Assembly: GCA_016932955.1 (NCBI GenBank)
Contig: JAFGBV010000104.1
Span: 1 to 55,717 of the forward strand
DNA: 55,717 bases
Reading direction: 5' to 3'
From: Anaerolineales bacterium
GTDB lineage: Bacteria > Chloroflexota > Anaerolineae > Anaerolineales > UBA4823
Shown one piece after another: positions 52 through 48,448 of this stretch. The notes under the pieces were generated by a model. The model ran no database searches and had not been told where the DNA came from. It was given only the letters and a program-made list of their open reading frames with translations. Position numbers and translations under genes: made by a program. Position 1 is the first letter of the stretch, and every line of letters starts with the position of its first letter.

Positions 52-57
52 TATAAT
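52..57 (+). promoter_or_regulatory. -10 box of comEC, leaderless arrangement
   Basis: A perfect TATAAT ends 6 bases before the ATG at 64, so transcription would begin at or next to the start codon. No Shine-Dalgarno sequence lies in between. A TTGACC at 38-43 is too close to serve as its -35. The same 6-7 base spacing recurs at several other genes here. Confidence 0.6.
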
Positions 58-63
58 TACCCC

Positions 64-2493
64 ATGCCGCTGCTCTGGCTCTCTCTCGCCTTCCTCACCG
101 GCATCATCCTTGCATCCAATACCTCACTGCCTCTATGGACCTGGCTGCTTCTCGCCGGAGCAGCTCTGCTCTCGCACATCCTTGCCCATTTCACCCCGCA
201 CTGGCTCACCCGTATACTAGTTTGGATACGCCGCGCCTGGAGTTTCCTGCCCCAGTGCTTCACCCGCATTACAACACAGTTTCGCGCTTACACTTCCCGA
301 ATCAAGCTCCCGCTCCCCGTGCTTATCCTATTTATCGCATGTATGGTTGGCGCTGCCAGGTACCAGGCTTCCCTGCCGCGCATCACTCCCGAACACATTG
401 CCTGGTATAACGATTGCCAATCAAATGTGATTGTCGAGGGTGTTCTGGTTGCGCCGCCCGATATACGTGATGGATACACTAACCTGCGTATCCGCGTCGA
501 TTCCATGCGTACGATGAGTGATCTGCTCTTCAACCCGGTCAAAGGATTGTTGCTGGCGCGCACCCAGCCCGGTCAGGATTGGCAATATGGCGACCGCCTC
601 CGCTTGGAAGGCACTGTACGCACACCGCCTGAGGGCGAATCCTTCTCCTACCGGGATTACCTGGCGCGACAGGGCATCCACAGCATGATGAACAATGCCC
701 AGGCTAACCTTTTGCTTAGCGGGCAGGGCAATCCCATCCTCACAGGTATCTACAATATCAAAGCGCACACCCTTTCCCTGATCTACCAGTATTACCCCGA
801 TCCCGAAGCATCGCTACTTGCCGGCATCTTGCTCGGCGTGGAGACGGGAATCCCCAATCATGTGCAGGAAGCATTCCGGGCGACAGGCACCAGCCATATC
901 ATTGCTATTTCCGGCTTTAATATCACTATCATCGCTGCTGTGCTGGTTTCTGGCTTCTCCCGTGTACTGGGCAGGCGGCGTGGCGCGATTGCCGCAGCGC
1001 TGGGGATTGCCACTTACACGATCCTGGTAGGGGCGGATGCAGCAGTGGTGCGCGCGGCTCTTTTCGGTTGGCTAACCCTGCTCGGCAGACAAATCGGCCG
1101 GCGGCAGACAGGCCTGAACAGCCTGGCTTTTATAGCAGGCCTGATGGCGCTAATCAATCCGAACGTGCTGTGGGATATCGGTTTTCAACTCTCTTTCGCT
1201 GCTACACTCGGCCTGATGCTCTATGCTACCCCCCTGACCGAAGCCTTCAAACGCTTCTGGGGCCGCCACGTTTCGCAGAGCAGCGCTGAACGGCTCGCAG
1301 CTCCAGTTGGCGAATACTTCCTGCTTACCCTGGCCGCCCAATTGACCACCCTGCCCATCACCATCTACCACTTCAGTCAAATTTCGCTGATCTCCCTACT
1401 TGCCAACCCGCTCATCCTGCCGGTACAGCCGCCGGTGATGCTGTTGGGGGGGGTGAGCGTTCTTTCCGGCTTGTTATACCAGCCGCTCGGTCAAGTCGTG
1501 GCGTATGCAGCACTTCCCCTCGTCACCTTCACCATCCGGGCGGTGGAATGGCTTTCCCGCCTTCCTGGTGGCGTCATCGCCTTTGGACAGGCTACCCTGC
1601 CAGTGGTCATTTCCCTTTATCTCATCCTCCTGGCTGTCACAATGTATGCATCCCGCCTCCCCTCCCCGGCGCAGAAATTTCGCCCGGCCTTTGCAATGGG
1701 TGCGCTGTTGATCTTCACCATGCTCACCTGGCGCAGCGCCTTCTCCGGACCCGATGGAAAGCTGCGCATCACCCTGTTAGATATCGGCACAGGAAGTGCG
1801 GTTCTGGTGCAGACTCCCGACGGGCGCGCCCTGTTAATCAGCGGCGGATCAAGCCCCAGCCGCATCTCCGATGCTCTCGGCCGACGCCTGCCCCCTGGAC
1901 AGCGCAGTCTGGATTGGTTGGTGATTGCAGCCCCAGAGCGCGATGGCGTGGCTGCACTGCCCCCACTCCTGGCGCGTTACCCACCCGGCGAGGTGCTCTG
2001 GGCAGGGCCGACCCATGGCACCTATGACTCGCGCACCCTCTGGGAAGCGCTGACCACGGATAAGATACCCATTACCCCTGCCATTCCCGGCCAGGCGCTC
2101 GACCTGGGAGAAGGCGCCTTATTAAAAATCCTCACTGTCAGCGGGCGTGGCACCGTATTGCTGCTGGAATGGGATCGTTTCCGTCTCCTCCTGCCCCAGG
2201 GCATTGACTTCAGCGATCTCGATGCTCTGCGCCGGGGGCAGACAATTGGCTCTCTCAGCGCCTTGCTCCTCCCCGCCTCCGGCTACAGCCCCCTCTCCCC
2301 ACCCGAATGGATTGCCGCCCTACAGCCACAGGTCATATTGCTCAGCGTCGCTGCGGACGATGTCGAAGGACTTCCCTCGCCAGAAACCCTGAAGGCCGCG
2401 CAGGGTTACACCCTCCTGCGCACCGATCAGAACGGCTGGATCGAGCTGACCAGTGATGGCAGGCAGATGTGGGTGACGGTGGAGAGAAAGTGA
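64..2493 (+). CDS. comEC: ComEC/Rec2-family DNA uptake channel with degenerate MBL domain
   Basis: This 809-residue protein resembles ComEC, the inner-membrane channel that brings single-stranded DNA into naturally competent cells. N-terminal membrane helices precede an OB-like region (about 115-225). The multi-pass competence domain follows (about 245-530) and includes the family stretch GTSHIIAISGFNITII near residue 275. The C-terminal part (about 570-809) aligns with the usual metallo-beta-lactamase domain, but its motifs are lost: DxGQGD is DIGTGS, the HxHxDH region reads AAPERDG, and the HHGS region reads PASGYS. Length is normal for the family. The ATG is 6 bases after TATAAT. The membrane channel call is firm; nuclease activity of the tail is doubtful. 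Confidence 0.93.
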   Translation: MPLLWLSLAFLTGIILASNTSLPLWTWLLLAGAALLSHILAHFTPHWLTRILVWIRRAWSFLPQCFTRITTQFRAYTSRIKLPLPVLILFIACMVGAARYQASLPRITPEHIAWYNDCQSNVIVEGVLVAPPDIRDGYTNLRIRVDSMRTMSDLLFNPVKGLLLARTQPGQDWQYGDRLRLEGTVRTPPEGESFSYRDYLARQGIHSMMNNAQANLLLSGQGNPILTGIYNIKAHTLSLIYQYYPDPEASLLAGILLGVETGIPNHVQEAFRATGTSHIIAISGFNITIIAAVLVSGFSRVLGRRRGAIAAALGIATYTILVGADAAVVRAALFGWLTLLGRQIGRRQTGLNSLAFIAGLMALINPNVLWDIGFQLSFAATLGLMLYATPLTEAFKRFWGRHVSQSSAERLAAPVGEYFLLTLAAQLTTLPITIYHFSQISLISLLANPLILPVQPPVMLLGGVSVLSGLLYQPLGQVVAYAALPLVTFTIRAVEWLSRLPGGVIAFGQATLPVVISLYLILLAVTMYASRLPSPAQKFRPAFAMGALLIFTMLTWRSAFSGPDGKLRITLLDIGTGSAVLVQTPDGRALLISGGSSPSRISDALGRRLPPGQRSLDWLVIAAPERDGVAALPPLLARYPPGEVLWAGPTHGTYDSRTLWEALTTDKIPITPAIPGQALDLGEGALLKILTVSGRGTVLLLEWDRFRLLLPQGIDFSDLDALRRGQTIGSLSALLLPASGYSPLSPPEWIAALQPQVILLSVAADDVEGLPSPETLKAAQGYTLLRTDQNGWIELTSDGRQMWVTVERK

Positions 2494-2571
2494 TTTGTCA
2501 CACTTGAGGTAAACAAACGAGACTGGATAATTCCATAGTTCGACCCGCTCACCTCTTGCAGGAAAGTGTGC

Positions 2572-4966: not shown

Positions 4967-6067
4967 TCAATAGCGCAACAGCGCCCCGATATCGCTAAAT
5001 CCTTTCACCTGGTGACCGTGCTGGAGAACCTCTACCTCACCGCCATCTTGCATCACCTTCCACACCGCCAACTCAACCGCATCAGGAATTTCCTCAAATT
5101 TTGCTCCGCAATATGAGCAGACAGGCAGCGCCTCCGCAGTTACATAGCCGCAACCCTGGCAGTGGTATCCCGGCGCGCGGTAGCCTTCACGAATCACAAG
5201 GGTCTGAACCCGCCCATCATGAACAAGCTTCAACGTTTCATCCAACCCCACCACGCCGCCCTTGCCTTTCGATGCGCTGGTCACTATTTTATTAAGCAAT
5301 GCCATCTCTTGCCGGCTTTCTGCTTCGTTACCAATTTGCATTGCCTTGCTGAGCACTTCTTCCTTACTGGCAGTCATCGGCATAGGGAATGTTCCGACAA
5401 TCAGACTTTGCCATGATTTGGGCAGCAACGTGCGGAACTGCGACACGTTATCATCTGTTCCACCAATCAAGACGCGCCGGACCCCGTTTTCCGCGAAGAA
5501 ATGTGCGGCAAATCCGGCAATCTCACGCATATTCCTTTCAGTGACTTCTTCAGTGTAATTGGTCTGCCCGGCAACACCTCCCCGCCGACCTGCAACCGCA
5601 GAAGCCCCACCTCGCTTGGTATGGCGCACACTTTCGCCCATCACACCTTCTTGTTCACGCAGCTCCCCTAGATGGAAGGAAAACAGCCTTGCGCCTTGCT
5701 TATCCATTAAAACCACACCATAACCCCCATAGGCATCCAATGCATCGGCAAGCGGTTTTACATGGGGATGGTTACCAATCCTTACACGATCGCGCACCTG
5801 GATTGCCAAGGTAAAAGGGCGGAAAAATTTCTCTGCTGTACAGGAAAATATCACCACGCTTTTGCCTGACCAATCAAAATCGCGCCCAAAGTATCTCTCC
5901 ACAGCCAGGATATCTTCAGGAAGATCAATATCTTTCAACATCGTCCGCAAACGCAAGCGATAGGCATCAGCATTGCCTTGCGAAGGATCAGTGCTCAGAT
6001 ACACGCTCAGCACTGGATGGTGAGCATGGAAACTGAGCAGCTCTTGCAAATCTTTCTCGGTCAACAT
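4967..6067 (-). CDS. Bacterial eRF1-like (baeRF/VLRF1-type) protein with GGA in place of GGQ
   Basis: This 366-residue protein follows the layout of archaeo-eukaryotic release factor domains 2 and 3. Residues 151-180 match the GGQ-loop region of eRF1, but the tripeptide reads GGA (153-155, within KRGGASA). In the release factor the glutamine drives peptidyl-tRNA hydrolysis. The domain-3-like part includes VGLDETLKLV and then a zinc-ribbon insertion with C303, C306, C317 and C320. Bacterial members of this superfamily are thought to act in translation quality control or ribosome rescue. AGAGGAGA lies just before the ATG. It is 89 bases downstream of the DnaJ gene and probably co-transcribed with it. 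Family call is confident; enzymatic role is open. Confidence 0.78.
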   Translation of the reverse strand: MLTEKDLQELLSFHAHHPVLSVYLSTDPSQGNADAYRLRLRTMLKDIDLPEDILAVERYFGRDFDWSGKSVVIFSCTAEKFFRPFTLAIQVRDRVRIGNHPHVKPLADALDAYGGYGVVLMDKQGARLFSFHLGELREQEGVMGESVRHTKRGGASAVAGRRGGVAGQTNYTEEVTERNMREIAGFAAHFFAENGVRRVLIGGTDDNVSQFRTLLPKSWQSLIVGTFPMPMTASKEEVLSKAMQIGNEAESRQEMALLNKIVTSASKGKGGVVGLDETLKLVHDGRVQTLVIREGYRAPGYHCQGCGYVTAEALPVCSYCGAKFEEIPDAVELAVWKVMQDGGEVEVLQHGHQVKGFSDIGALLRY

Positions 6068-7095: not shown

Positions 7096-7289
7096 AAGGG
7101 TTCAGTTATTAAACGAAATTGTCGCGAGAAGTGTCATGTAATCGTAATACCATTTTATGCGCATCTGGTACTGTAAGTCAAGCATCCGCGAGGGTTTTAA
7201 CAATATTCTAATACATGAAATCCATGTTGCCTGAACATTATTGCCTGTAAAAAGAGGCGTTTTATCTCCCGTTTTTCCTCCAACCATGC

Positions 7290-7295
7290 TATGAT
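7290..7295 (+). promoter_or_regulatory. -10 box of the kinase gene, leaderless arrangement
   Basis: TATGAT ends 6 bases before ATG 7302. No ribosome-binding site is present in between and no good -35 is seen. The spacing matches the other leaderless candidates in the window. Confidence 0.5.
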
Positions 7296-7301
7296 TAACC
7301 C

Positions 7302-8963
7302 ATGAACATTCCAAAAGAACGTATCCTATTGGTTGAAAATGATCCAGAGATTAGCGACCTGATCAGCAGGCAAACTCTTCAGCCATTGGGTTACCGAGTG
7401 GAAGTAGTTGGAGCAGCACCCGCTGCAATCCAGGAGGCGCTTCGCTTTTCCCCGGATGTGGTCATGGCAAACCTCAGCCTGCCCGGATTGAGCGGCAAAG
7501 ATTTGCTGGTGGCCCTGGCTGCGCAAGGATTGGACGTTCCGATCGTGGTGATCGCGCCGAAAGGAATGGAAGGGGATGTCGTTCAAGCTTTTCGGCTCGG
7601 CGCATCCGATTTCCTCAGTTGGCCAGTGCGCGAGGCAGAGGTAGTATCCGCTGTGGAGCACGTGCTCAAACAGGTACGAGCCCGCCGCGAACGCGAGATG
7701 CTGGCACGCCAGCTCAACCAGACTAACCTGGAATTGCAGCACAGGGTACGCGAGTTAACCACGCTTTTCGCCATTGGCAAGGCAGTCATTACTGCAACCG
7801 ATCCACAAAGCCTGTTCAACAAGATTATGGAAGGAGCCACCTTCGTCAGCGAAGCCGATAGCGGCTGGTTGCTGGTGCGGGATGAAAAGGTCAAAACATT
7901 TACACTCAAAGCCACTCGCAACGTCCCCGAAGATATTCATGCCAGGCTCAACCAAACATTCGATGATGGGCTTAGCTCGCTAGTGGCGCTATCTGGCGAA
8001 TCGCTCTCGATCCATGGCGACCCTCTCAAAAGGTTTAAGATATCCAGGCTGGGCAAATCTACCCTGGTCGTCCCAGTTAAAGTGAAGAAGGACGTTGTGG
8101 GGCTGCTGGTCGTCGTTCGCAAAGAGGCCCAGCCTTTCAGCGCCAGCCAACAGGCGCTTCTTGAAGCAGTTGCAGATTATGCATCCATCTCGTTGGTCAA
8201 TAGCCGTCTATTCAAGGCTCTGGAAGATCGCCTGCGGGTATTACAATCGTCAGCCGATCATGCCGGAATCGGCGGGCGCATCCAGGATGATACTGTGCAG
8301 CAGATCAACCACGAACTTCGAGAGCCGTTAAGAGCGATCAAGGGCAATGTTGATATGCTGCTGGGGAATACAATGGGCAAGCTCAATGTGGAACAAACCA
8401 ACGCGATGAGTGTAATTCAGGAAAAGCTTAAAACGATCTTTCAGATAGCCGAGAGCATAGAAGAACAAAAGCAGCCCTCGTCGGATACAGACCGCAACCT
8501 TGCCAACCTGAATGATCTTGCCCGCGAGGCTGTCAGCCGATACCAGAAAATTGCGCGTCAGAATGCAGCCGACCTGATGCTTGAGCTGCCCTCCAAAAAC
8601 CTGGTTGCCCGGGCAGACCCGAACCATATCGCCAAGGTATTGGATAGCCTGCTCTCCAATGCGATCAAGTATAGCCCACAGGGAGGACAAATCACGGTGC
8701 GTGTGGAGCGCACAGGAGATAACCTGGTCCATGTCACCGTGCAAGACCACGGTAGAGGAATTGGCGCACAACACCTCGCACACTTATTTGAATCATCGTA
8801 TCGGGTTGAGGGAACCCCATCGGGGCGCTACGGTGGAATCGGAATCAACCTGCCACTGGTCAAGGAGATCATCAACGCGCACGGTGGAAAAGTTTGGGCA
8901 GAAAGCAAAAGCAGCGAAGGATCGACCTTTCACTTCACCCTTCCACTTCTCGGCGGTCAGTGA
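7302..8963 (+). CDS. Hybrid sensor histidine kinase: pseudo-receiver, GAF, kinase
   Basis: Residues 1-125 have a receiver fold, but the phosphoacceptor aspartate is asparagine (PDVVMAN, N57) and the conserved threonine and lysine are also missing. A short coiled coil leads to a GAF domain (about 150-310). The dimerisation/phosphotransfer helix has H337 in NHELREP. The ATP-binding domain shows SNAIKYSP, DHGRGIG and GGIGINL motifs. It is soluble, with no membrane segment. It is followed 42 bases later by a second kinase of similar build, and no intact response regulator is adjacent. The kinase call is firm; the N-terminal domain probably senses by binding and not by phosphorylation. Confidence 0.9.
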   Translation: MNIPKERILLVENDPEISDLISRQTLQPLGYRVEVVGAAPAAIQEALRFSPDVVMANLSLPGLSGKDLLVALAAQGLDVPIVVIAPKGMEGDVVQAFRLGASDFLSWPVREAEVVSAVEHVLKQVRARREREMLARQLNQTNLELQHRVRELTTLFAIGKAVITATDPQSLFNKIMEGATFVSEADSGWLLVRDEKVKTFTLKATRNVPEDIHARLNQTFDDGLSSLVALSGESLSIHGDPLKRFKISRLGKSTLVVPVKVKKDVVGLLVVVRKEAQPFSASQQALLEAVADYASISLVNSRLFKALEDRLRVLQSSADHAGIGGRIQDDTVQQINHELREPLRAIKGNVDMLLGNTMGKLNVEQTNAMSVIQEKLKTIFQIAESIEEQKQPSSDTDRNLANLNDLAREAVSRYQKIARQNAADLMLELPSKNLVARADPNHIAKVLDSLLSNAIKYSPQGGQITVRVERTGDNLVHVTVQDHGRGIGAQHLAHLFESSYRVEGTPSGRYGGIGINLPLVKEIINAHGGKVWAESKSSEGSTFHFTLPLLGGQ

Positions 8964-18443: not shown

Positions 18444-19448
18444 TTATGCAGATGCGCCTTTGCGAATCCGGGGCATATCGAGCATAAACACCTCCAGCGC
18501 CAAACGGGTATTCACATTCCGCCCGATGAGATCCAATGTTTGCTCCAGCGCACGAACCATCGATCGAGCAACGTCCGGCTCTAAACGCCCTGCCAGATCT
18601 TTCAGTACTTCAGACCAATCCAGATTGACCGGCGCTAGCGAGGCCCCGGCTGCATACATAGCCAAATCACGCCAGAAAGAGAGCCAGACAAACAAAACCT
18701 GCCTGAGATCTTCCTTCTGCTCGGCTAATTTCCTGGCATATGCAAAACGCTCTACGCGAGCCGCGCTCAGCAAAGAAACGAGATCATCCAGCCAAACCTG
18801 GCGCTGCTCCATAAGCTCTGCATGTCTGTGCAGTTGCAGGGCATATCCTGGCCGACCACCAGAGACATGCGCCAATAAGCGCGCCATATCTGCGTCCAGG
18901 CCCCACAGGGATTGTAAGCCATCTGCCGTAAGCTCGCTGGACAAAGGACGTAAACGCAGCACCTCGCAGCGAGAGATGATTGTGGGCAAGAGGCTTTCTG
19001 GGCTCTCGGCGGTCAGCGCCAAAACCACCTGAGGAGGAGGCTCCTCCAGGGTCTTTAGTAGCGCATTGGCAGCGCCAGGGTGGGCTTCTTCAAACCGTAA
19101 TAGCAGTGCTACGCGATAGCGCCCTTCGTAAGGAGCAAGTGCCAGGGTATGCTGAAGCTCACGCACCTGGTCAATCTTCAAAGTGCCTCCAACCTGCTCG
19201 GCCTGAACAACCGCTAGGTCAGGATATTGCATGGTCTCAATCCGCTTGCAAGCCAAACATTGTCCACAAGGCTCGCCAGGCTGCGTGGGTTCCAAGCAAT
19301 TCAAAGCCTGCGTCAGACGCAAAGCCAACGTCCGCCGCCCCACACCAGCCGGCCCCGTCAACAAGTATGCGTGACGGACTTGATTTCGGGCAACGTGCTC
19401 TCGCAGCAAGTTAACTGCCCATTCATGCCCTAACATGCCCCAATTCAT
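18444..19448 (-). CDS. holB: DNA polymerase III delta-prime subunit
   Basis: This AAA-fold clamp-loader subunit carries a zinc-binding cysteine cluster (CGQCLACKR plus an upstream cysteine), ANALLKTLEEPP, and SRCEVLRL, all typical of delta-prime. The P-loop reads GPAGVGRRT, with arginine in place of the lysine, which fits a subunit that need not hydrolyse ATP. ATG 19448 (334 residues) starts just before the family sequence MLGHEWAVNLL. It is seven bases after a TAAAAT -10 with a TTGTCA -35 at 17-base spacing. The longer frame to 19574 would run across its own promoter and that of the helicase gene. Confidence 0.88.
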   Translation of the reverse strand: MNWGMLGHEWAVNLLREHVARNQVRHAYLLTGPAGVGRRTLALRLTQALNCLEPTQPGEPCGQCLACKRIETMQYPDLAVVQAEQVGGTLKIDQVRELQHTLALAPYEGRYRVALLLRFEEAHPGAANALLKTLEEPPPQVVLALTAESPESLLPTIISRCEVLRLRPLSSELTADGLQSLWGLDADMARLLAHVSGGRPGYALQLHRHAELMEQRQVWLDDLVSLLSAARVERFAYARKLAEQKEDLRQVLFVWLSFWRDLAMYAAGASLAPVNLDWSEVLKDLAGRLEPDVARSMVRALEQTLDLIGRNVNTRLALEVFMLDMPRIRKGASA

Positions 19449-19455
19449 AACCAGA

Positions 19456-19484
19456 ATTTTAGCCGAGAGTGCATTTCTTGACAA
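19456..19484 (-). promoter_or_regulatory. Leaderless promoter of holB
   Basis: On the minus strand TTGTCA (19484-19479), a 17-base spacer and TAAAAT (19461-19456) form a near-consensus promoter. The -10 ends 7 bases before ATG 19448, so the mRNA would begin at the start codon. Confidence 0.65.
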
Positions 19485-19536
19485 CCACATAACCCACACG
19501 AACAACCTTTTTGCGCACCCCATACACAGGTTGCTG

Positions 19537-19565
19537 TTGACACACCCCTGACCTGACGGTAGAAT
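19537..19565 (+). promoter_or_regulatory. Leaderless promoter of the PcrA/UvrD-type helicase
   Basis: A perfect TTGACA (19537-19542), a 17-base spacer and TAGAAT (19560-19565) make a strong promoter. The predicted +1 falls at about 19572, next to ATG 19573. An upstream in-frame ATG at 19564 overlaps the -10 box and so cannot be in the transcript. Confidence 0.75.
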
Positions 19566-19572
19566 GTCCCCC

Positions 19573-21750
19573 ATGGATTTTATTACTGGTTTAAACCCTC
19601 AGCAGCAACAAGCTGTGATGGCTGGGCTGGGGCCGGTGCTCGTAATGGCTGGACCGGGCTCCGGAAAAACACGCGTCCTGATCCACCGAATTGCTTACTT
19701 GATCGGCGCGATGGGTGTGCGGCCTTACCAGATCCTGGCAGTCACGTTCACCAACAAAGCCGCCCGCGAAATGGAAAGCCGTGTCATCGGCCTGTTAGGC
19801 GACTCGGCGCGGGGCATCACCCTGGGCACATTTCATGCCAACTGCGCCCGCATTCTCCGCCGCGAGGCTGAGAACCTCCCCTTTGACTCAAATTTTGTGA
19901 TCTTCGATGATGATGATCAATTAGGTCTGGTAAAACGCGCAATATCAGATTTGAACCTGGATGAGAAACAGTACCGCCCCCATGCCGTTCACGGCGCGAT
20001 TTCGAATGCGAAAAATGAGCTCATCTTGCCAGATGACTATCCCAGCAACACTTACCGAGATGAGGTTGTGCAGCGCGTTTACACACGCTACCAGCAAATG
20101 CTGTTGGCTAACAATGCCCTTGATTTCGACGACCTATTGCTCTGGACCGCCACGCTGTTGGATCAAAACCCTGCTGTACGCGAGAAATATGCTCGGCGCT
20201 ACGAGCATATCCTGGTCGATGAATTCCAGGACACGAACATGGCGCAGTATATCCTCATCAAGCACCTGGCCTCTTTCCATGGTAATGTATTTGTAGTTGG
20301 TGACACAGATCAATCCATTTATCGCTGGCGCGGCGCTGATTATCGGAATGTTCTGCGCTTTGAACACGATTTTCCAGACACACAGGTAATCCTCCTAGAG
20401 CAAAACTATCGCTCCACGCAGCATATCCTGGATGTAGCCATGGCAGTGATCGACCGCAACCCTCACCGCGCCCCCAAGCGCTTATTTACCGAGCGCGGTA
20501 ACGGGTTAAAAGCGATCTTACATGAGGCTTATGATGATCGCATGGAAGCAGCATTCGTGGTGGATAGTATTGCCAGCCTGGTAGCGCGGAAGCAATCTCA
20601 GCCAGGCGATTATGCCATCATGTACCGCACCAATGCCCAGTCCCGCCTGCTGGAAGAGGCATTTCTGCATGCCGGCCTGCCTTACAAACTGGTTGGCGCC
20701 CAACGATTCTACGGTCGCCGCGAGATCAAGGACGTGATTGCTTACCTGCGCCTGATCCAGAACCCAAGCGACGAATTCAGCCTGATCCGGGTGATCAATA
20801 CTCCCCCGCGCGGCATTGGTGACAAGACCCAGCAAGGGCTGCGCACCCAGGCGCAAAAAGCCTGCCTGACGCCAGGGGAAATGCTCCTGGAATTGGCCCG
20901 TTCCGCCGATCACCCTGCATCAACAATGCTCGGCGTGCGTGCGGCGAGTCTCCTTTCCGCTTTTGGCGTCCGGCTGGCAGGTTGGCATGCGCTGGCAGGC
21001 GAACATCCGCCGCTGTTCCTCATGGACCGTATTCTGGATGAGGTGGAATACCGGGCTTACATTGATGATGGAACGGATGAAGGTAATGACCGCTGGGAAA
21101 ATGTGATGGAGCTTCGCCGGCTCGCAGCCGAGTACCGCGACCGCAGCCTGGGTGAGTTCCTCGAAGCGATTGCTCTCGTATCAGACCAGGATACCCTGCA
21201 GAACAGCGCTAATGTTCCTACTATGCTCACCTTGCATGCTGCCAAAGGATTAGAATTCCCTATCGTGTTCATTGTGGGGCTAAACGATGGAACCCTGCCC
21301 CACTCGCGCTCCTTCGAAGACCCCGAGGGTATGCAGGAAGAAAGGCGCCTGTTTTACGTAGGCATCACCCGCGCTAAAGACTGCCTGTACCTGGTCTATT
21401 CGCAAAACCGCAGCGCGTACGGGTATAGTGAGCCCGCAGAGCCATCGCGTTTTCTAGAGGATATCCCGCAGGCATTGCTGGATGAGAGCAACCCGAGGCG
21501 CTCTGGAACGCAGCTTAAACCCACCAGCTACAATCCTTTTGCCCTCCGGTGGAAAAATGCAGGCGCTGCTGCAGTGCTGCAACAGCGCTTCCACCCGGGG
21601 ATGCACGTGGAGCACCCCACCTGGGGCAAGGGCATGGTTTTAAACAGCCGCATGCAAGATGATGACGAAATTGTCGACACATTTTTCGAGGAGGTCGGCC
21701 TAAAGCGGGTTGCTGCCTCGCTGGCAAATTTAAAGATTGTAGAAAAGTGA
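19573..21750 (+). CDS. UvrD/PcrA-type superfamily I DNA helicase
   Basis: The 725-residue protein carries all SF1A motifs: Walker A AGPGSGKT, GTFHANCARIL, Walker B DEFQDTN, GDTDQSIYRWRGAD, LEQNYRS, AAKGLEFPIVF and FYVGITRA. The C-terminus keeps a Tudor-like tail (HPTWGKGMV), as in PcrA/UvrD proteins that contact RNA polymerase. Such helicases unwind DNA 3'-5' in nucleotide excision and mismatch repair and clear recombination intermediates. Start ATG 19573 was preferred over 19564 because the latter lies in the -10 box. It is divergent from holB and followed by a terminator. PcrA versus UvrD cannot be settled from the sequence alone. Confidence 0.93.
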   Translation: MDFITGLNPQQQQAVMAGLGPVLVMAGPGSGKTRVLIHRIAYLIGAMGVRPYQILAVTFTNKAAREMESRVIGLLGDSARGITLGTFHANCARILRREAENLPFDSNFVIFDDDDQLGLVKRAISDLNLDEKQYRPHAVHGAISNAKNELILPDDYPSNTYRDEVVQRVYTRYQQMLLANNALDFDDLLLWTATLLDQNPAVREKYARRYEHILVDEFQDTNMAQYILIKHLASFHGNVFVVGDTDQSIYRWRGADYRNVLRFEHDFPDTQVILLEQNYRSTQHILDVAMAVIDRNPHRAPKRLFTERGNGLKAILHEAYDDRMEAAFVVDSIASLVARKQSQPGDYAIMYRTNAQSRLLEEAFLHAGLPYKLVGAQRFYGRREIKDVIAYLRLIQNPSDEFSLIRVINTPPRGIGDKTQQGLRTQAQKACLTPGEMLLELARSADHPASTMLGVRAASLLSAFGVRLAGWHALAGEHPPLFLMDRILDEVEYRAYIDDGTDEGNDRWENVMELRRLAAEYRDRSLGEFLEAIALVSDQDTLQNSANVPTMLTLHAAKGLEFPIVFIVGLNDGTLPHSRSFEDPEGMQEERRLFYVGITRAKDCLYLVYSQNRSAYGYSEPAEPSRFLEDIPQALLDESNPRRSGTQLKPTSYNPFALRWKNAGAAAVLQQRFHPGMHVEHPTWGKGMVLNSRMQDDDEIVDTFFEEVGLKRVAASLANLKIVEK

Positions 21751-21768: not shown

Positions 21769-21797
21769 GCGCCTGACAGGGTGAGGCGCGGGTTTTT
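21769..21797 (+). terminator. Rho-independent terminator after the helicase gene
   Basis: GCGCCT (21769-21774) pairs with AGGCGC (21784-21789) around a 9-base loop and is followed by GGG and TTTTT. It lies between the helicase stop and the tsaE promoter. Confidence 0.6.
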
Positions 21798-21822
21798 GCT
21801 ACCCGCTTTCCACAATCCGCTG

Positions 21823-21828
21823 TATAAT
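21823..21828 (+). promoter_or_regulatory. -10 box of tsaE, leaderless arrangement
   Basis: A perfect TATAAT ends exactly 6 bases before ATG 21835. There is no ribosome-binding site between them. It follows the helicase terminator directly. Confidence 0.65.
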
Positions 21829-21834
21829 CGCCGC

Positions 21835-22329
21835 ATGCCCATCCTTGGTTCTCATTCACTGGAGATCATCAGTCGCAGCGCGGAACAAACGCGGCGCGTG
21901 GGAATGCGCCTGGGCGCTATGCTTCAGGCTGGTAATTTACTTGGCATGACAGGCGACCTTGGATCAGGAAAAACGACCCTGGTACAGGGGATTGCCGCAG
22001 GCTGGGGATCGCTCGATCCGGTCACCAGCCCAACTTTTGTCCTGGTCAACGTTTACCGCCGCCTGGACGGACTGCGTATGTTCCACCTGGATGCCTATCG
22101 TCTGAGCGATGCCAGAGAGGCGATTGACCTCGATCTTCAAAACATGTTGGATCAGGGACCGTTGGTTGTCGAATGGGCGGAGCGCGTCCAGGCTGCGCTG
22201 CCTGCTGAAGGCTTATGGATGAAACTGACTTGGGTTGACGATATGCAACGAGATATGATCCTCTCTGCACATGGCCCCTACTACGAAACACTCTTGGTAA
22301 AATTCCGGAAGCAGCTCTATGGAGGGTAA
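21835..22329 (+). CDS. tsaE: tRNA t6A-modification ATPase TsaE
   Basis: The 164-residue protein has Walker A GDLGSGKTT near residue 40 and the family stretches SPTFVLVNVY and VVEWAERV. TsaE is the ATPase partner of TsaB and TsaD, which install threonylcarbamoyl on A37 of ANN-decoding tRNAs. ATG 21835 fits the family N-terminus and the -10 spacing; the frame stays open to 21781 but that region holds the terminator and promoter. The next gene, tsaB, starts at the base after the stop. No tsaD is in the window. Confidence 0.93.
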   Translation: MPILGSHSLEIISRSAEQTRRVGMRLGAMLQAGNLLGMTGDLGSGKTTLVQGIAAGWGSLDPVTSPTFVLVNVYRRLDGLRMFHLDAYRLSDAREAIDLDLQNMLDQGPLVVEWAERVQAALPAEGLWMKLTWVDDMQRDMILSAHGPYYETLLVKFRKQLYGG

Positions 22330-22998
22330 ATGCTCTTAGCCATCGACACCTCCACCCGCACGGTTGGCCTGGCGCTGTATGATGGCGTGCAGGTGCGCTG
22401 TGAGTTGGTATGGAAGAGCCAGGATTTCCACACGGTTGAGCTTGCGCCTGCCATCTCCGAAACCCTGCGCCGCGCTGCGGCGGAAATCAACCTACTTCAA
22501 GTCATCGCTGTAGCCATTGGCCCGGGATCTTTCACCGGGTTGCGCATTGGATTGGCTATGGCAAAAGGGCTGGCTCTGGCACGCCATTTGCCCCTGATCG
22601 GCATCCCCACGCTGGATGCTGTTGCCGCATCCCAGCCGGTAAGAAATCTTCCCCTGGCGGCAGTGCTGAACGCCGGGAGAGGACGCCTGGCGGCGGGGTG
22701 GTATCATGGCGAATCGGGGCAATGGCAGCCCACGCGTCCGGTTGAGATGCTGGATGTCAATAAGCTGTCCTGGCGCATCCAACAGCCCACAATCGTCTGT
22801 GGCGAATTGAACGAGGAAGAGCAGCGTATTCTTGCCCGTAAGCACAAAAATGTACTGCTGGCTTCGCCTGCCCACGCTTTGCGCAGGCCATCATTTCTGG
22901 CAGAGCTGGCATGGAAACGCTGGCAGGCTGGTCAGGTGGACGAGCCTGCCGCGCTCGCCCCAATCTACCTGCACGTTGGCGATCCCATCCCTGGATAA
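22330..22998 (+). CDS. tsaB: tRNA t6A-modification protein TsaB
   Basis: The 222-residue protein starts LLAIDTSTRTVGLALY and contains AVAIGPGSFTGLRIGLAMAK, both characteristic of TsaB, the inactive TsaD-like scaffold that dimerises with TsaD for tRNA t6A synthesis. The ATG immediately follows the tsaE stop, with GGAGGG overlapping that stop, so the two are translated together. The C-terminal half is more variable, as usual. Length is typical. Confidence 0.93.
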   Translation: MLLAIDTSTRTVGLALYDGVQVRCELVWKSQDFHTVELAPAISETLRRAAAEINLLQVIAVAIGPGSFTGLRIGLAMAKGLALARHLPLIGIPTLDAVAASQPVRNLPLAAVLNAGRGRLAAGWYHGESGQWQPTRPVEMLDVNKLSWRIQQPTIVCGELNEEEQRILARKHKNVLLASPAHALRRPSFLAELAWKRWQAGQVDEPAALAPIYLHVGDPIPG

Positions 22999-22999
22999 T
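22994..22999 (+). promoter_or_regulatory. Possible internal -10 box of rimI, leaderless arrangement
   Basis: GATAAT overlaps the end of tsaB and stops 6 bases before ATG 23006, repeating the spacing seen for tsaE and comEC. No ribosome-binding site precedes this ATG. Confidence 0.4.
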
Positions 23000-34853: not shown

Positions 34854-34910
34854 CGCCCCCATTGACCAGGTGCCCATTACTGTAAACCTGCAGCTCGTCA
34901 TGAAATGTGC

Positions 34911-36659: not shown

Positions 36660-36665
36660 GGAAGC

Positions 36666-38669
36666 ATGTACTGGCTACGCAGTAATGATCTGGTCAGCCT
36701 CGTGAGCCTTGCATTGCTCAGCAGTTGCTGGGCGCTGGGAGGTTGGATGCTCACCACCCACGCCTTCCGCCTGCGCGCCTCGGAACGATTGATCAGCGGC
36801 CTGGCAACCGGCATGCTGCTGTTCATCGGCCTGGGCAATCTCTTATCCAACCTGCTACCCGAAGCAGTATCCTTTTGGGCTGCTGCCTTGCTTGTACTGG
36901 CTGGGGGGATGCTGGCTGCCCGACGCTCTGCAATCTCAAAGCGCCGCCCCTGGCTGGATTGGAGAGACCTGCGCGCCTGGCCCGCCTTGCTGGCGTTGCT
37001 GATCCTGACCATGCTGTTCCAGGCTATCCAGAGCGGGTTGGCGATTTTCGACGAGTACCTGCACATTCCTCTCGTTTCAACCATGGCGGCAGGGGATATT
37101 CCTCCTCATTTCTATCTTAATCCCGATACTCGCTTCGCTTACCATTACGGCATCCAGGTGTATGCGGCCAGCCTGGTGCGATTGGGGGATTTCTTCCCCT
37201 GGAGCGCCTGGGATCTCAGCCGAGCGATTGCCATCGCCTTCACGCTGGTGCTGGGTTGGATCTGGGTGCGACGAGTCACTGGCAGCCGCCTGGCAGCCTG
37301 GCTGGGCAGCTTTGCGTTCACCTTTGCCGGAGGGACGCGCTGGCTGCTGCTCCTGTTGCCTGCCTCTTGGCGAGGTTGGCTGGACGCAGGCGTCCATCTG
37401 GCGAACACCGGCAAGGATACCGCAGCCGTCTTTTCGGCCGCACTGCAAGGTCCCTGGATCATCGAGGGGGGCGGACAGATTCCGTTCCCATTTGCCTTCC
37501 ACAGTGGTTTTTTTGTCCCGGTGATGTTCGCCCTGGGCAGCACAGGGGCAATGCTGTACATGACCATTTTGCTCCTGCTGCTACTCTTGCCGCGCCCGCG
37601 GTTCTCACCAGCGGGGTTGATCATCTGGAGCCTGCTCTTTGCCACCCTGGCGCTCAGCGCCGAGCACCTTTTTGCTGCAATCTGGACTGGCATTGCCCTG
37701 GTTGGCGGCTATGCTTTCCTGCAGCGGCAGCGCAAGGCGGAGCTGATGCAGTGGGGGTTTGTGCTGCTCGCCAGCGCCATCTTGGCAGCCATCCAGGGCG
37801 GCTTCGTTACTGAGACGCTGCGCGGCTTGCTGTTGCCGCTGCTGGGCCAGCCAGCGCTGAGCAACAACGCCTACGATTTCAACCTGCGCTGGCCCCCGGC
37901 CATTCCCACTGCCCACACGGAGCCGCTTTCGATCTTTGATGCGCGCCAGCTCGTCGCGCTGCTGGCCGAGATGAGCCCTGTGCTGCTACTGGCCCCAGCA
38001 GTCATCATTCTTACAGTGAAAAAGATCCATCGCATCTCGTGGTTTTGGAGCGGCCTAAGCATCAGTGCTATTCTGAGCGTGCTTTTTGCCTTGTTCATCC
38101 GATACGGTGTTGACCGCTCGATGACGCGCATGCCGGCTACGGCCTTGTGGACCTGGCTGGTGCTGGGTTTCCCACTGCTGTGGAAGGCGCTGCCGCGCCT
38201 GCGCTTTGCCCGCCTGGGTGTTGCCTTGGGTTACATCCTTACGCTGACCGCTGGTGTCGTTATCTTTGTGGTGCAGCTTGCCAATATCCCGGTTACGCAA
38301 TATACCTATTTCATCGATGCGCTGGATGCCGGGTTCTGCGCTGATTACTGGGGCGAGCTTCCACCAGGAGCGCAGGTACTGGACCATGAGGCTTCGCGCG
38401 CTCCGACGATCTTCGGCAGGATCCCGCGCGCCCACGCAGAGATCTACATCCCCCTGCCAGAATGGGAAGCGCTGATTGCCAACCCCGATCCGGTGCGCGC
38501 AGCCCAGGCTGGCTTTGACTACGTCTACCTGGATAAAGCCTGGTGGGTCAAGCTGACCAGCGCCCAGCAGGAAACATTGATGCAGCCCTGCGTGGATATC
38601 ATCGAGGAGCGCAAGTCGACTTTTGGCTATCGACTGCTGCTCGATATCAGCGCCTGCAGGCTGAGGTAG
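36666..38669 (+). CDS. Large membrane protein, GT-C-like, unknown substrate
   Basis: The 667-residue protein has about 12-13 membrane spans and a soluble C-terminal part (about 560-667). The loop IFDEYLHIPLVSTMAAGDIPP near residue 125 has an acidic pair, as in the catalytic loop of GT-C glycosyltransferases, followed by RFAYHYGIQVY. GTGAGGAAGC before the ATG is an adequate ribosome-binding site. It resembles the previous gene in general build but not in detail. Assignment as glycosyltransferase is inference. Confidence 0.65.
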   Translation: MYWLRSNDLVSLVSLALLSSCWALGGWMLTTHAFRLRASERLISGLATGMLLFIGLGNLLSNLLPEAVSFWAAALLVLAGGMLAARRSAISKRRPWLDWRDLRAWPALLALLILTMLFQAIQSGLAIFDEYLHIPLVSTMAAGDIPPHFYLNPDTRFAYHYGIQVYAASLVRLGDFFPWSAWDLSRAIAIAFTLVLGWIWVRRVTGSRLAAWLGSFAFTFAGGTRWLLLLLPASWRGWLDAGVHLANTGKDTAAVFSAALQGPWIIEGGGQIPFPFAFHSGFFVPVMFALGSTGAMLYMTILLLLLLLPRPRFSPAGLIIWSLLFATLALSAEHLFAAIWTGIALVGGYAFLQRQRKAELMQWGFVLLASAILAAIQGGFVTETLRGLLLPLLGQPALSNNAYDFNLRWPPAIPTAHTEPLSIFDARQLVALLAEMSPVLLLAPAVIILTVKKIHRISWFWSGLSISAILSVLFALFIRYGVDRSMTRMPATALWTWLVLGFPLLWKALPRLRFARLGVALGYILTLTAGVVIFVVQLANIPVTQYTYFIDALDAGFCADYWGELPPGAQVLDHEASRAPTIFGRIPRAHAEIYIPLPEWEALIANPDPVRAAQAGFDYVYLDKAWWVKLTSAQQETLMQPCVDIIEERKSTFGYRLLLDISACRLR

Positions 38670-44103: not shown

Positions 44104-45390
44104 ATGAGTGAGATTGCCATTCGCGTCGAAAACCTGAGCAAGCAGTTCAGCATCGGCGTCGCCCCTGAGCGTTACCGCACCCTGCGCGACACCCTGCTGG
44201 ATACGCTCTCGCTGCCCTATCGCGCGGCGCGCTCTATGATCCAGCCCTCAAAGTACAAGGTGCAGCCGACTGCTAGGATCTGGGCTTTGCGTGACGTCTC
44301 CTTCGAGGTTCAGCAAGGGCAAGTGCTGGGGATCATTGGGCGGAATGGGGCAGGCAAAAGCACGTTGCTTAAAATCCTTTCCCGGGTCACCGAACCGACC
44401 CAGGGAGTGGCAGAGATCCATGGACGGGTGGGCTCTTTGCTGGAGGTTGGCACAGGCTTCCACCCTGAGCTGACCGGGCGCGAGAACATCTACCTCAATG
44501 GCGCCATCCTGGGCATGAAACGCACGGAGATCGAGAGCAAATTCGATGAAATCGTCGAATTCTCTGAGGTCAGCCAATTCATTGATACGCCAGTGAAGCG
44601 CTACTCCAGCGGGATGTACCTGCGCCTGGCATTCGCCGTCGCCGCGCACCTGGAGCCGGAGATCCTGGTGGTGGACGAGGTGTTGGCGGTTGGCGATGCC
44701 GAGTTCCAGCGCAAATGCCTGGGGAAAATGAGCGATGTGGCGCAGGCAGGGCGCACTGTGCTCTTCGTCAGCCACAATATGTCTGCCATCCTGCGCCTTA
44801 CCGAAGAGACGATCGTTCTCGACCACGGCAATCTGGTTTACCGGGCGCGCACACCTGAAGCCATTGATTATTACATGGCTGCTGGCTTCAATGATGTCGG
44901 CGAGCGTTCCTGGAGTAGTGAGGAGATCCCCTCCAGCGCTGCGCCTTTCCGCCCGCTGGCGCTGCGCGTGTGCAATGGGCAGGGGCGGGTGGTCGATACG
45001 CTGCGCTCCACCGAGCCGATCCAGATCGAAGTGGAATACGAGCTTGAACAGCCAATCACCGGCTTGCGGGTGGGCATCTACCTGCTCACCATGCGCGGCG
45101 AATATGTATTCACTTCCTTTGACACCGATGATCCCGAGCAGTTCGAGCGCTTCAGCACGCGCTCACAAGGCCACTACATCAGTCGCTGTGCGATCCCCGC
45201 AAATTTCCTCAACGAGGGGCGCTATGTGCTGGCAGTCAATGCCTCTTCGTTTGGCATCAAACGCTATTTCTGGGATGACCATACACTGGCATTCAATGTG
45301 GATGCTACTGGCGCGCCTGGCAAACATTGGCCTGAACCTCGGCTGGGACCGGTGCGCCCGGCGCTGAATTGGAAAATTGAGCCGGTATGA
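44104..45390 (+). CDS. Polysaccharide ABC transporter ATPase with C-terminal glycan-binding domain (Wzt-like)
   Basis: The 428-residue protein has Walker A GRNGAGKST (about residue 79), the signature YSSGMYLRLAFAVA, Walker B ILVVDEVLAVGD and a switch histidine in SHNMS. The region after about residue 260 is the extra beta-sandwich domain seen in Wzt of E. coli O8/O9a, which recognises the modified end of the glycan chain. A frame extension back to 43738 lies inside the permease gene. Its stop overlaps the ATG of the following gene (ATGA). Confidence 0.9.
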   Translation: MSEIAIRVENLSKQFSIGVAPERYRTLRDTLLDTLSLPYRAARSMIQPSKYKVQPTARIWALRDVSFEVQQGQVLGIIGRNGAGKSTLLKILSRVTEPTQGVAEIHGRVGSLLEVGTGFHPELTGRENIYLNGAILGMKRTEIESKFDEIVEFSEVSQFIDTPVKRYSSGMYLRLAFAVAAHLEPEILVVDEVLAVGDAEFQRKCLGKMSDVAQAGRTVLFVSHNMSAILRLTEETIVLDHGNLVYRARTPEAIDYYMAAGFNDVGERSWSSEEIPSSAAPFRPLALRVCNGQGRVVDTLRSTEPIQIEVEYELEQPITGLRVGIYLLTMRGEYVFTSFDTDDPEQFERFSTRSQGHYISRCAIPANFLNEGRYVLAVNASSFGIKRYFWDDHTLAFNVDATGAPGKHWPEPRLGPVRPALNWKIEPV

Positions 45391-47036
45391 GCACAAGTAA
45401 AGAGTTGTTGAAGAACATTCTGGGTGACCTACCCTTGACAGCCGAGGCATACTGGTACCTGCGCCAGCGCGGTCGCCCGCTGACCGCCAAGTTCGCCCTC
45501 ACCCGCCTGCAAAAAGCCATTCCCCAATGGCGTGCAGAGGCCGAGGCTGCTCTTGCCTCGCCTCGATTCGTTTCGCCCAGCGACCAGGGAGAGGAAAAAT
45601 CCAGGCATATCTTGATCTTTGGCACGCTGCGCTATTGGATCGAACAGGCCACCTTGCTGAGCCTGGTTTTTGCCGGGTTGGGTCACCGTGTGACCCTTGC
45701 ATATCTGCCCTACGCGCAGTGGCAAAAACCGCTCGACCGCTTCAACCTGCGCCGTCACAATGTTTATGCGCGCAACATCCTGTGCAAGATCGAGCCATTC
45801 GTTGAAGTGCTGCCGTTGCTGAATGCCCATCCGGCGAAAGAACTTCCCGGAGACCTGCAGGCATCCATTGAGCTGGTCGCCCTGCGCGATACGCAGTACA
45901 CGCTGCAGGTAGAAAATCTGAACTTAAACGAGGGTGCGGGTCGCGATCTCTACCAGTTGCGCCTGCAGCGCAACCTGGAAGCCGCCCATGCTGCCTACGC
46001 ATGGCTGCAGCGCAACCGCCCGGATGTGGTTGTTCTGCCCAACGGAACGATCCTGGAATTCGGCGTTATTTACCAGACCGCGCGCTACTTGAACATCCCC
46101 ATCGTCACCTATGAATACGGCGAACAACAGCGGCGCATCTGGCTGGCGCAAAACGCCGAGGTGATGCGCCAGGAGACGAACGATCTCTGGGCCGTGCGCA
46201 AGGATAGCCCACTCACCCCGGAGCAGCTGGAGCAGGTGCGCACGCTCTTTGCCTCGCGCCAGCGCGCCAGCCTGTGGGAAAATTTTGCCCGCCGCTGGCA
46301 GGGTGTTCCCAGCCAGGGCGGCGCCAGGGTGCGCCAGGATTTAGGCTTGGATGGGCGACCGGTCGTGCTGCTGGCGACCAATGTGATTGGCGACAGCCTG
46401 ACCCTCGGGCGGCAGGTTTTCAGCGACTCGATGACAGGCTGGCTGGAGCGCACCGTTGAATACTTTGCCCAGCGCCAGGACGTGCAGTTCATCGCCCGCA
46501 TTCACCCCGGCGAATTGATCACCAAGGGGCCTTCGGTGGCTGATGTGGTGCGCAAGGTGCTACCCAACCTGCCGGAGCACATCCACCTGGTTCCGGCGGA
46601 TGCCCAGATCAACACCTACGACATCATCGAGATTGCCGACCTGGGACTGGTGTATACCACAACCGTCGGCATGGAGATGGCGATGAGCGGCGTGCCGGTG
46701 ATCGTCGTGGGCAACACGCATTACCGCAGCAAGGGTTTCACCCTGGATCCTGATACCTGGGAGGCCTATTTTGAGACGCTCAGCAGGGTTCTTGATGACC
46801 CGGCGCAATACCGCCTCGCGCGCGAGCAGGTGGACCTCGCCTGGCAGTATGCCTACTGCTTTTTCTTTGCCTACCCGCATCCCTTCCCCTGGCATATCCT
46901 GCACATCTGGCCCGACCTGGAAGAATGGCCTGTGGCACGCGCCCTCAGCCCGGAGGGACAGGCGCAGTTTGGCCAGACTTTCCGTTACCTGACTGGTAAT
47001 CCCATTGTTTATGCAGCCGAGCAGCCCTATGAATAA
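45387..47036 (+). CDS. Capsule-polysaccharide-synthesis-like GT-B protein (KpsS-type)
   Basis: The 549-residue protein has a GT-B-like layout with IARIHPGELI and VYTTTVGMEMAMSGVPVIVVG near the C-terminus, both typical of the capsule polysaccharide biosynthesis/Kdo transferase group. It overlaps the Wzt stop by ATGA, so it is coupled to the exporter. In other bacteria relatives link the lipid acceptor to the first sugar, or act in chain assembly. Here the substrate is unknown. No membrane segments are seen. Confidence 0.7.
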   Translation: MSTSKELLKNILGDLPLTAEAYWYLRQRGRPLTAKFALTRLQKAIPQWRAEAEAALASPRFVSPSDQGEEKSRHILIFGTLRYWIEQATLLSLVFAGLGHRVTLAYLPYAQWQKPLDRFNLRRHNVYARNILCKIEPFVEVLPLLNAHPAKELPGDLQASIELVALRDTQYTLQVENLNLNEGAGRDLYQLRLQRNLEAAHAAYAWLQRNRPDVVVLPNGTILEFGVIYQTARYLNIPIVTYEYGEQQRRIWLAQNAEVMRQETNDLWAVRKDSPLTPEQLEQVRTLFASRQRASLWENFARRWQGVPSQGGARVRQDLGLDGRPVVLLATNVIGDSLTLGRQVFSDSMTGWLERTVEYFAQRQDVQFIARIHPGELITKGPSVADVVRKVLPNLPEHIHLVPADAQINTYDIIEIADLGLVYTTTVGMEMAMSGVPVIVVGNTHYRSKGFTLDPDTWEAYFETLSRVLDDPAQYRLAREQVDLAWQYAYCFFFAYPHPFPWHILHIWPDLEEWPVARALSPEGQAQFGQTFRYLTGNPIVYAAEQPYE

Positions 47037-47916: not shown

Positions 47917-47920
47917 ATCC

Positions 47921-48445
47921 ATGATCCAGCCCTGGGAAAAGCTGCAAGAGAAAGCATTGACCAACGGTCGCCGAAGGGTGCTGCGCCGCACCTTTCAGTT
48001 GCCGGATGGGCAAATCGCTGATTATGATATCAAGCACGAGCCGCGGGTAGTTGCAATCCTGCCCATCACCGCAGACCAGCGAGTAGTGCTTGCCTGCCAG
48101 TTTCGCCCAGGACCGGAGAAGGTGGTGCTGGAGTTGCCCGGCGGTGGGATCGAGGATGGCGAGACGCCCGAACATGCCGCCCGGCGCGAGCTGCTTGAAG
48201 AAACCGGCTATACGGGTGAGATCCAGCCTGTGGGTGTAAGCCTGGAATGCGCCTACTCAACCGCCTGGCGCTATAACTTCGTTGCCACCGATTGTCATCC
48301 AGTGCAGGACCCAAGCCCTGACAGCGGCGAGTTCATCGACGTTGTTGAGATGCCGCTGGCAGATTTTCGCCGCCACCTGCGTAGCGGGCAGCTCAGTGAT
48401 GTTGAGACCGGCTACATGGGATTGGATTACTTGGGATTGCTCTAA
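47921..48445 (+). CDS. Nudix hydrolase (ADP-ribose pyrophosphatase-like)
   Basis: The Nudix box is complete: GGGIEDGETPEHAARRELLE followed by ETGY, matching GX5EX7REUXEEXGU. The surrounding sequence (QFRPGPEKVVLELPGGGI) resembles ADP-ribose/nucleotide-sugar pyrophosphatases. GGGGAGG lies ten bases before the ATG. Its position in a sugar-nucleotide locus suggests hydrolysis of excess NDP-sugar, but ADP-ribose is equally possible. Confidence 0.87.
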   Translation: MIQPWEKLQEKALTNGRRRVLRRTFQLPDGQIADYDIKHEPRVVAILPITADQRVVLACQFRPGPEKVVLELPGGGIEDGETPEHAARRELLEETGYTGEIQPVGVSLECAYSTAWRYNFVATDCHPVQDPSPDSGEFIDVVEMPLADFRRHLRSGQLSDVETGYMGLDYLGLL

Positions 48446-48448
48446 AAT
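48443..48448 (+). promoter_or_regulatory. Possible -10 box (TAAAAT) before pseB
   Basis: TAAAAT overlaps the Nudix gene stop and ends 6 bases before ATG 48455. The TAA stop codon contributes to the match, so it could be chance. Confidence 0.3.

What the first reader, a model, noticed from the sequence alone, without database searches (positions are those of the whole stretch)
52..48448. Recurrent -10 box 6-7 bases before the start codon: a leaderless mRNA signature
comEC (TATAAT at 52), the 7302 kinase (TATGAT at 7290), holB (TAAAAT, minus, 19456), the helicase (TAGAAT at 19560), tsaE (TATAAT at 21823), rimI (GATAAT at 22994) and possibly pseB (TAAAAT at 48443) all place the box 6 or 7 bases before ATG, with no ribosome-binding site. 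Other genes here have good ribosome-binding sites with normal leaders, so two initiation modes seem to coexist.
Basis: partly seen in the sequence, partly recalled or inferred. Interest (0 to 1): 0.72.

Follow-up and report, generated by a model that had tools for sequence, protein, structure and literature searches.

The report
Leaderless promoters in an Anaerolineales genome
Five genes in this bacterial DNA stretch have the promoter's -10 box placed so close to the start codon that the messenger RNA probably begins at or within a few bases of the start codon, a known but minority way of starting genes that related bacteria often keep at the same genes.

Summary
The window is from an Anaerolineales-like (Chloroflexota) genome. 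All seven boxes are at the stated coordinates, 6-7 bases before an ATG. Five hold up: comEC, the 7302 kinase, holB, the pcrA/uvrD-type helicase and tsaE. In genome G020, the best match for comEC, kinase and tsaE, all five keep a -10-like hexamer 6-7 bases before a start codon. Of the 30 loci fetched for holB, 21 have it at 6-7; holB and pcrA also have a -35 at about 17 bases. Two are rejected: the rimI and pseB boxes contain the stop codon of the upstream operon gene, rimI's is not conserved (1 of 25, a weak test), and pseB has a better start with a Shine-Dalgarno. In six relatives the box peaks at -12/-13 in transcription-unit-first genes (33 of 741, 8.9 expected), not in internal genes (2 of 412). 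Over 14 whole genomes TATAAT-N6/N7-ATG is about twice background. The leaderless reading is supported for five genes; transcript ends were not measured. The mode is already reported for Chloroflexi (PMC3160421): a new member of a known kind.

The parts
52..57 (+). -10 box TATAAT of comEC, 6 nt before ATG 64
   Evidence: relatives' loci: 9 of 26 have a box at spacer 5-11 before some in-frame start, 6 of 26 at 6-7
64..2493 (+). comEC CDS (MPL start common among orthologues)
   Evidence: PF03772 1.2e-53
7287..7295 (+). extended -10 TGC-TATGAT of the hybrid histidine kinase, 6 nt before ATG 7302
   Evidence: a TGCTAT-type box is visible in 8 of 12 fetched relatives' loci, spacers 6, 7, 7, 7, 8, 8, 9, 11 (read by eye)
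7302..8963 (+). receiver-GAF-histidine kinase CDS; the receiver domain match begins at residue 8, so the start cannot be much later
19479..19484 (-). -35 TTGTCA of holB, 17 nt from the -10
19456..19461 (-). -10 box TAAAAT of holB, 7 nt before ATG 19448
   Evidence: 21 of 30 relatives' loci at spacer 6-7
18444..19448 (-). holB CDS (an NW motif right after the start is shared by many orthologues)
   Evidence: TIGR00678 4.5e-53, one bit under its cut-off
19537..19542 (+). -35 TTGACA of pcrA, 17 nt from the -10
19560..19565 (+). -10 box TAGAAT of pcrA, 7 nt before ATG 19573
   Evidence: relatives' loci: 14 of 20 at spacer 5-11 before some in-frame start, of which 11 at the aligned start (6 of them at 6-7)
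19573..21750 (+). PcrA/UvrD-type helicase CDS; ATG 19573 rather than 19564 by orthologue starts
   Evidence: TIGR01073 1.9e-239, below its equivalog cut-off
21823..21828 (+). -10 box TATAAT of tsaE, 6 nt before ATG 21835
   Evidence: 22 of 29 relatives' loci have TATAAT at spacer 6-10 (10 at 6-7)
21835..22329 (+). tsaE CDS; the longest ORF starts at 21781, upstream of the promoter box
   Evidence: TIGR00150 8.2e-26; start MP[IV] common among orthologues
22994..22999 (+). GATAAT before rimI: rejected, contains tsaB stop codon
   Evidence: 1 of 25 relatives' rows
48443..48448 (+). TAAAAT before pseB: rejected, contains stop codon of the NUDIX gene
48457..48460 (+). GGAG Shine-Dalgarno of pseB ATG 48467, the likelier start

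Best explanation
comEC, the 7302 kinase, holB, pcrA and tsaE are transcribed from housekeeping sigma-70-type promoters whose -10 element ends 6-7 bases before the start codon. The start codon therefore occupies the normal +1 position and the mRNA is leaderless, or has a leader of at most a few nucleotides; relatives show spacers of 6 to about 10. Such mRNAs are translated without SD pairing, from a 5'-terminal AUG, while SD-led, coupled and other non-SD genes coexist in the same genome. Shown: the promoter elements, their spacing, their conservation and the absence of SD. Inferred: the transcript 5' ends and the translation mechanism.
For: Position and sequence. Orthologue footprints among the best 30 loci (12 for the kinase): holB 21 of 30, all at 6-7; pcrA 14 of 20 (11 at the aligned start, 6 of these at 6-7); tsaE 22 of 29 (10 at 6-7); comEC 9 of 26 (6 at 6-7); kinase 8 of 12 by eye. 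In G020 all five have it at 6-7 (L202, L234, L270, L300). -35 with >=5/6 of TTGACA: 15 of 29 boxed holB rows, 11 of 15 boxed pcrA rows printed, against 27 of 2022 chance boxes in coding DNA. Six relatives, 741 transcription-unit-first genes: 20 at -12 and 13 at -13 against about 4.5 per position at -17..-29; operon-internal 2 of 412. With holB, pcrA, tsaE and comEC loci taken out: 31 of 731 against 8.8 (Poisson p 4e-9). SD in 1 of 53 boxed versus 364 of 688 unboxed genes, and 45 of 207 for scrambled hexamers at the same place (Fisher p 2e-4). Pyrimidine at -1 in 37 of 47 versus 572 of 977 (p 0.006); 29 of 37 versus 555 of 946 (p 0.017) without those four genes. Whole genomes, 14: TATAAT-Nk-ATG k=6 550, k=7 562, k=9 343, k=10 360, k=15 261, k=16 287 (totals summed by hand).
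Against: No RNA data. Two of the seven examples fail. comEC has the box in a minority of relatives (9 of 26). The second pool, other Chloroflexota loci (14 of 283 against 4.6), is centred on pcrA; without holB, pcrA, tsaE and comEC it falls to 6 of 252 against 3.8, not significant (p 0.19). The overall -35 score of boxed genes is not significantly above control (Mann-Whitney p 0.12), although >=5/6 matches are (6 of 53 versus 27 of 2022; Fisher p 1e-4). tsaE and pcrA relatives often have spacers of 9-10, which would give a 2-3 nt leader. The E. coli control gave 4 of 124; for 3 of these 4 the caller's start disagrees with the RefSeq start, so the same caller error probably affects the Chloroflexota counts too.
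Confidence: 0.87

Rival explanations
1. The boxes are real promoters but transcription usually starts a few bases inside or upstream (leader 1-5 nt) or at additional upstream promoters, so the main mRNAs are short-leadered rather than strictly leaderless.
For: Spacers of 8-10 in many tsaE and pcrA relatives and a shoulder at -14..-16 (7, 7, 6 of 741).
Against: The peak is at 6-7; pyrimidine before the start codon; fewer boxes at -17..-29 (about 4.5 per position) than at -30..-45 (about 7.8), as if leaders too short for an SD but longer than a few bases are avoided.
Confidence: 0.25
2. Chance: A+T-rich hexamers near starts in a 56% G+C genome, picked by eye, with starts chosen to fit.
For: Probably true for rimI and pseB.
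Against: Conservation of box, spacing and -35 at holB, pcrA and tsaE; ten scrambled hexamers give 20.7 hits on average versus 53; absence from operon-internal genes.
Confidence: 0.04
3. The A+T-rich patch before the start is not a promoter but a translational signal, such as an S1 site or an unstructured region, in leadered mRNAs.
For: PMC5397173 (passages) warns that A+T bias around -20 to -10 cannot simply be put down to leaderless promoters.
Against: The -35 at about 17 nt in most boxed holB and pcrA rows, extended -10 in the kinase, strict position and hexamer specificity, absence from internal genes.
Confidence: 0.04

Closest known systems
TA-led leaderless genes of bacteria (Zheng et al. 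2011, PMC3160421, passages read)
   Same: TANNNT/TATAAT box about 10 bp upstream of the start, no SD. Chloroflexi are among the phyla listed: 4 of 12 genomes, average 4.7% of genes (4.0-5.7), TAtaaT pattern in medium-GC groups.
   Different: No gene-level conservation in Anaerolineales was seen in the passages read; here the excess is -0.3 to 9.3% of transcription-unit-first genes over six sampled relatives.
-10-motif adjacent to ORFs in Deinococcus-Thermus (Zhong et al. 2025, PMC12340547, outline and passages)
   Same: Box about 6-7 bp upstream of the ORF, acts as the promoter -10, leaderless mRNA.
   Different: Nearly one third of D. radiodurans genes there; here a minority. T. thermophilus pTT27 with the same pipeline: TANNNT at -12 or -13 15 times in 62 first genes.
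Bacterial genomes with leaderless transcription in the GeneMarkS-2 study (as cited in PMC9581028, passages)
   Same: Leaderless and SD genes in one genome; predicted for 21.6% of bacterial species.
   Different: Where Anaerolineae stand in that scheme was not seen.

Membership tests
Leaderless sigma-70 genes of bacteria | -10 hexamer 6-7 nt before the start codon | tested here: met
   for five genes in the window; orthologues partly at 6-7, partly at 8-10
Leaderless sigma-70 genes of bacteria | box belongs to a real promoter (-35 at about 17 nt, or extended -10) | tested here: met
   holB TTGTCA-17-TAAAAT and pcrA TTGACA-17-TAGAAT, often conserved; kinase TGC-TATGAT. Not tested for comEC and tsaE, which have exact TATAAT
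Leaderless sigma-70 genes of bacteria | no Shine-Dalgarno | tested here: met
   for the five; 1 of 53 boxed genes in relatives has one
Leaderless sigma-70 genes of bacteria | confined to the first gene of a transcription unit | tested here: met
   relatives: 33 of 741 first versus 2 of 412 internal; rimI and pseB in the window are internal and rejected. comEC's upstream neighbour lies outside the window
Leaderless sigma-70 genes of bacteria | mapped transcription start at the start codon | not testable with these tools
   no RNA data held; -1 pyrimidine bias is consistent
Leaderless sigma-70 genes of bacteria | translation from a 5'-terminal AUG | not testable with these tools
   none

The most novel reading that the evidence does not exclude
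Anaerolineales hold a fixed core of leaderless genes (holB, pcrA, tsaE and others) under selection for leaderlessness itself. It includes a compact divergent holB|pcrA pair whose two start-codon-abutting promoters nearly fill the intergenic gap (78 bp in L007 and L010), as a way to tie replication and repair gene expression to the state of the ribosome or initiation factors rather than to SD strength.
Probability: 0.2. Interest if true: 0.5.

Novelty: new member of a known kind. Interest (0 to 1): 0.3.

Why it matters
It gives gene-level, conserved cases of probable leaderless initiation in a large, mostly uncultured class where starts may be annotated by SD-biased or longest-ORF rules. It also suggests start corrections: in the window the longest ORFs of tsaE (21781), holB (19574) and pcrA (19564) begin upstream of or inside the promoter. 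The holB, pcrA and tsaE orthologue sets are a ready test bed for how long leaderlessness persists at a locus.

Tried and rejected
rimI and pseB as leaderless. A single-genome profile of G001, too weak alone. A plain -35 score comparison over all boxed genes, not significant. The pool of other Chloroflexota loci as independent support: it owed most of its signal to pcrA and its neighbours and is not significant without them. E. coli as a clean negative control: 4 of 124, of which 3 are caller starts that differ from RefSeq. SD depletion from raw counts alone, partly geometric because the box occupies the SD site, so scrambled hexamers were used. Literature searches touching transcription starts or leaderless genes in Chloroflexota: among the rows listed (12 of 185; all 2, 3, 1 and 0 in the others) I saw no paper that maps starts in this phylum; this covers only the held library and those word combinations.

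Full report
What the window is. The helicase from the window is 71% identical to one in an Anaerolineales MAG, and the first 53 of the 80 kept loci bear names that belong to Chloroflexota, most of them Anaerolineae or plain Chloroflexi (the placement of names such as Thermoflexus or Ornatilinea is recalled). No genome of the window itself is held.

The observation. comEC: TATAAT-6-ATG 64. Kinase: TGC-TATGAT-6-ATG 7302. holB (minus): TTGTCA-17-TAAAAT-7-ATG 19448. Helicase: TTGACA-17-TAGAAT-7-ATG 19573. tsaE: TATAAT-6-ATG 21835. rimI: GATAAT-6-ATG 23006, with the tsaB stop codon inside the box. pseB: TAAAAT-6-ATG 48455, with the upstream stop codon inside the box and a second in-frame ATG at 48467 preceded by GGAG.

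Orthologue footprints. Loci were the best 30 per gene from 121 relatives of G001 (94 genomes with a comEC match, 118 holB, 109 tsaE). A >=5/6 TATAAT match with A2 and T6 fixed, before an in-frame start within 60 bases of the aligned start, occurs as follows. holB: spacer 6-7 in 21 of 30 (19 at the aligned start, 2 at an ATG 12 bases earlier). pcrA, readable in 20 of the 30 holB loci: 14 of 20 at spacer 5-11, 8 at 6-7; counting the aligned start only, 11 of 20, 6 at 6-7. comEC: 9 of 26, 6 at 6-7. tsaE: 22 of 29, spacers 6 (8), 7 (2), 8 (1), 9 (8), 10 (3). rimI: 1 of 25. Only loci where the N-terminal part aligned and at least 60 bases lay upstream were counted. An earlier look at the loci gave holB 8 of 8 at spacer 6-7, by a looser box rule (these include two genomes seen again). 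For the kinase, 8 of 12 fetched loci show a TGCTAT-type extended -10, spacers 6 to 11, by eye (loci were fetched for 12 of 49 genomes with a match). In genome G020, the best match for comEC, tsaE and the kinase, all five genes have the box at spacer 6-7: L202 (comEC, before a GTG 12 bases upstream of the aligned start), L234 (holB, and pcrA before a GTG; the script took another pcrA start there), L270 (tsaE), L300 (kinase).

The holB|pcrA pair. They are divergent in the window (124 bp between start codons) and in 25 further scored loci, and on the same strand in L053. The gap is 64-140 bp in 21 of these 26. The best -35 lies at 17 nt in nearly all boxed holB rows and in 10 of 15 boxed pcrA rows printed. 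A >=5/6 TTGACA match is present in 15 of 29 boxed holB rows (29 of 39 rows boxed, window included, genomes G001 and G002 counted twice) and 11 of 15 boxed pcrA rows. In L007 and L010 (78 bp) the two promoters would take up about 73 bp.

Is it a genome feature? A simple coding-potential gene caller, blind to upstream signals, was run on stretches of six relatives. Among 741 transcription-unit-first genes the hexamer occurs 20 times at -12, 13 at -13, then 7, 7, 6, about 4.5 per position at -17..-29, and about 7.8 at -30..-45. Among 412 operon-internal genes it occurs 2 times at -12 and never at -13. So leaders seem to be either about 0-4 nt or long enough for an SD. Without holB, pcrA, tsaE and comEC it is 31 of 731 against 8.8 (p 4e-9). 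Excess at -12..-16 among first genes: G001 5.6%, G002 7.5%, G003 2.1%, G004 3.7%, G005 9.3%, G013 -0.3%; with the looser TANNNT rule 7.5, 10.1, -5.8, 2.1, 7.1 and -6.1%. A second pool, other Chloroflexota loci centred on pcrA, gave 14 of 283 against 4.6, but only 6 of 252 against 3.8 without the four genes, not significant. Boxed genes lack SD (1 of 53 versus 364 of 688), more often start with ATG (49 of 53 versus 559 of 688, p 0.04), and more often have a strong -35 (6 of 53 versus 27 of 2022 chance boxes in coding DNA), although the whole -35 score distribution is not significantly shifted (p 0.12). Ten scrambled hexamers give a mean of 20.7 hits versus 53, with SD in 45 of 207. The base before the start is C or T in 37 of 47 versus 572 of 977 (p 0.006; p 0.017 without the four genes). 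Controls: Thermus pTT27 shows TANNNT 10 and 5 times at -12 and -13 in 62 first genes; E. coli 4 of 124, three of them at caller starts that differ from RefSeq (with annotation).

Start-caller-free check. Over 14 whole Chloroflexota genomes (about 65 Mb), TATAAT-Nk-ATG on both strands totals 550 (k=6), 562 (7), 343 (9), 360 (10), 261 (15), 287 (16) (summed by hand from the tables). Not every genome shows it: G010 has 7, 5, 7, 12, 10 and 9.

Mechanism. Sigma-70 holoenzyme starts some 6-8 bases after the -10 (recalled), which here is the start codon; the AUG-ended mRNA is then translated without SD pairing. The second half is described for other prokaryotes (passages of PMC10783764) and is inferred here.

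Known or new. Zheng et al. 2011 (passages) list Chloroflexi with leaderless genes in 4 of 12 genomes, 4.7% on average, with a TAtaaT pattern. Zhong et al. 2025 (outline and passages) report the -10 motif about 6-7 bp before ORFs in Deinococcus. A table in PMC10783764 (passages) gives Anaerolineae the figure 58 in its '% SD' column, so a large non-SD remainder is expected. Nakagawa et al. 2017 (PMC5397173, passages) caution against reading every A+T bias as leaderless. The kind is known; the gene-level conservation at holB, pcrA and tsaE in Anaerolineales is the addition. Confidence was lowered slightly (0.88 to 0.87).

Noticed in passing
L270-L299, upstream of tsaE: The TATAAT-to-ATG spacer is bimodal, 6 (8 loci) or 9 (8 loci), with 7, 8 and 10 in 2, 1 and 3; none of the eight 9-spacer rows has a start codon three bases earlier.
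   Followed up: partly
window 18444-21750: Divergent holB|pcrA pair with both promoters abutting their start codons; divergent too in 25 of 26 other scored loci.
   Followed up: yes
window 21781-21835, 19448-19574, 19564-19573: Longest-ORF starts of tsaE, holB and pcrA lie upstream of or inside the promoter, so automatic annotation may mis-place them.
   Followed up: partly
window 40634: HTH gene with TATAAT 24 bases before ATG and no SD-like 4-mer: a short-leader non-SD gene, hence perhaps a third initiation class.
   Followed up: no
window 4967-6067: Protein of the bacterial archaeo-eukaryotic release factor family 10 (PF18854).
   Followed up: no
window 24319-49459 and probably beyond: Long surface-glycan-type gene cluster with NDP-sugar enzymes and an ABC transporter with a Wzt C-terminal domain (genes after 49459 were not scanned).
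   Followed up: no
window 29151-32220, 34905-38669, 45387-47036: Five large ORFs without any Pfam match at 1e-5.
   Followed up: no
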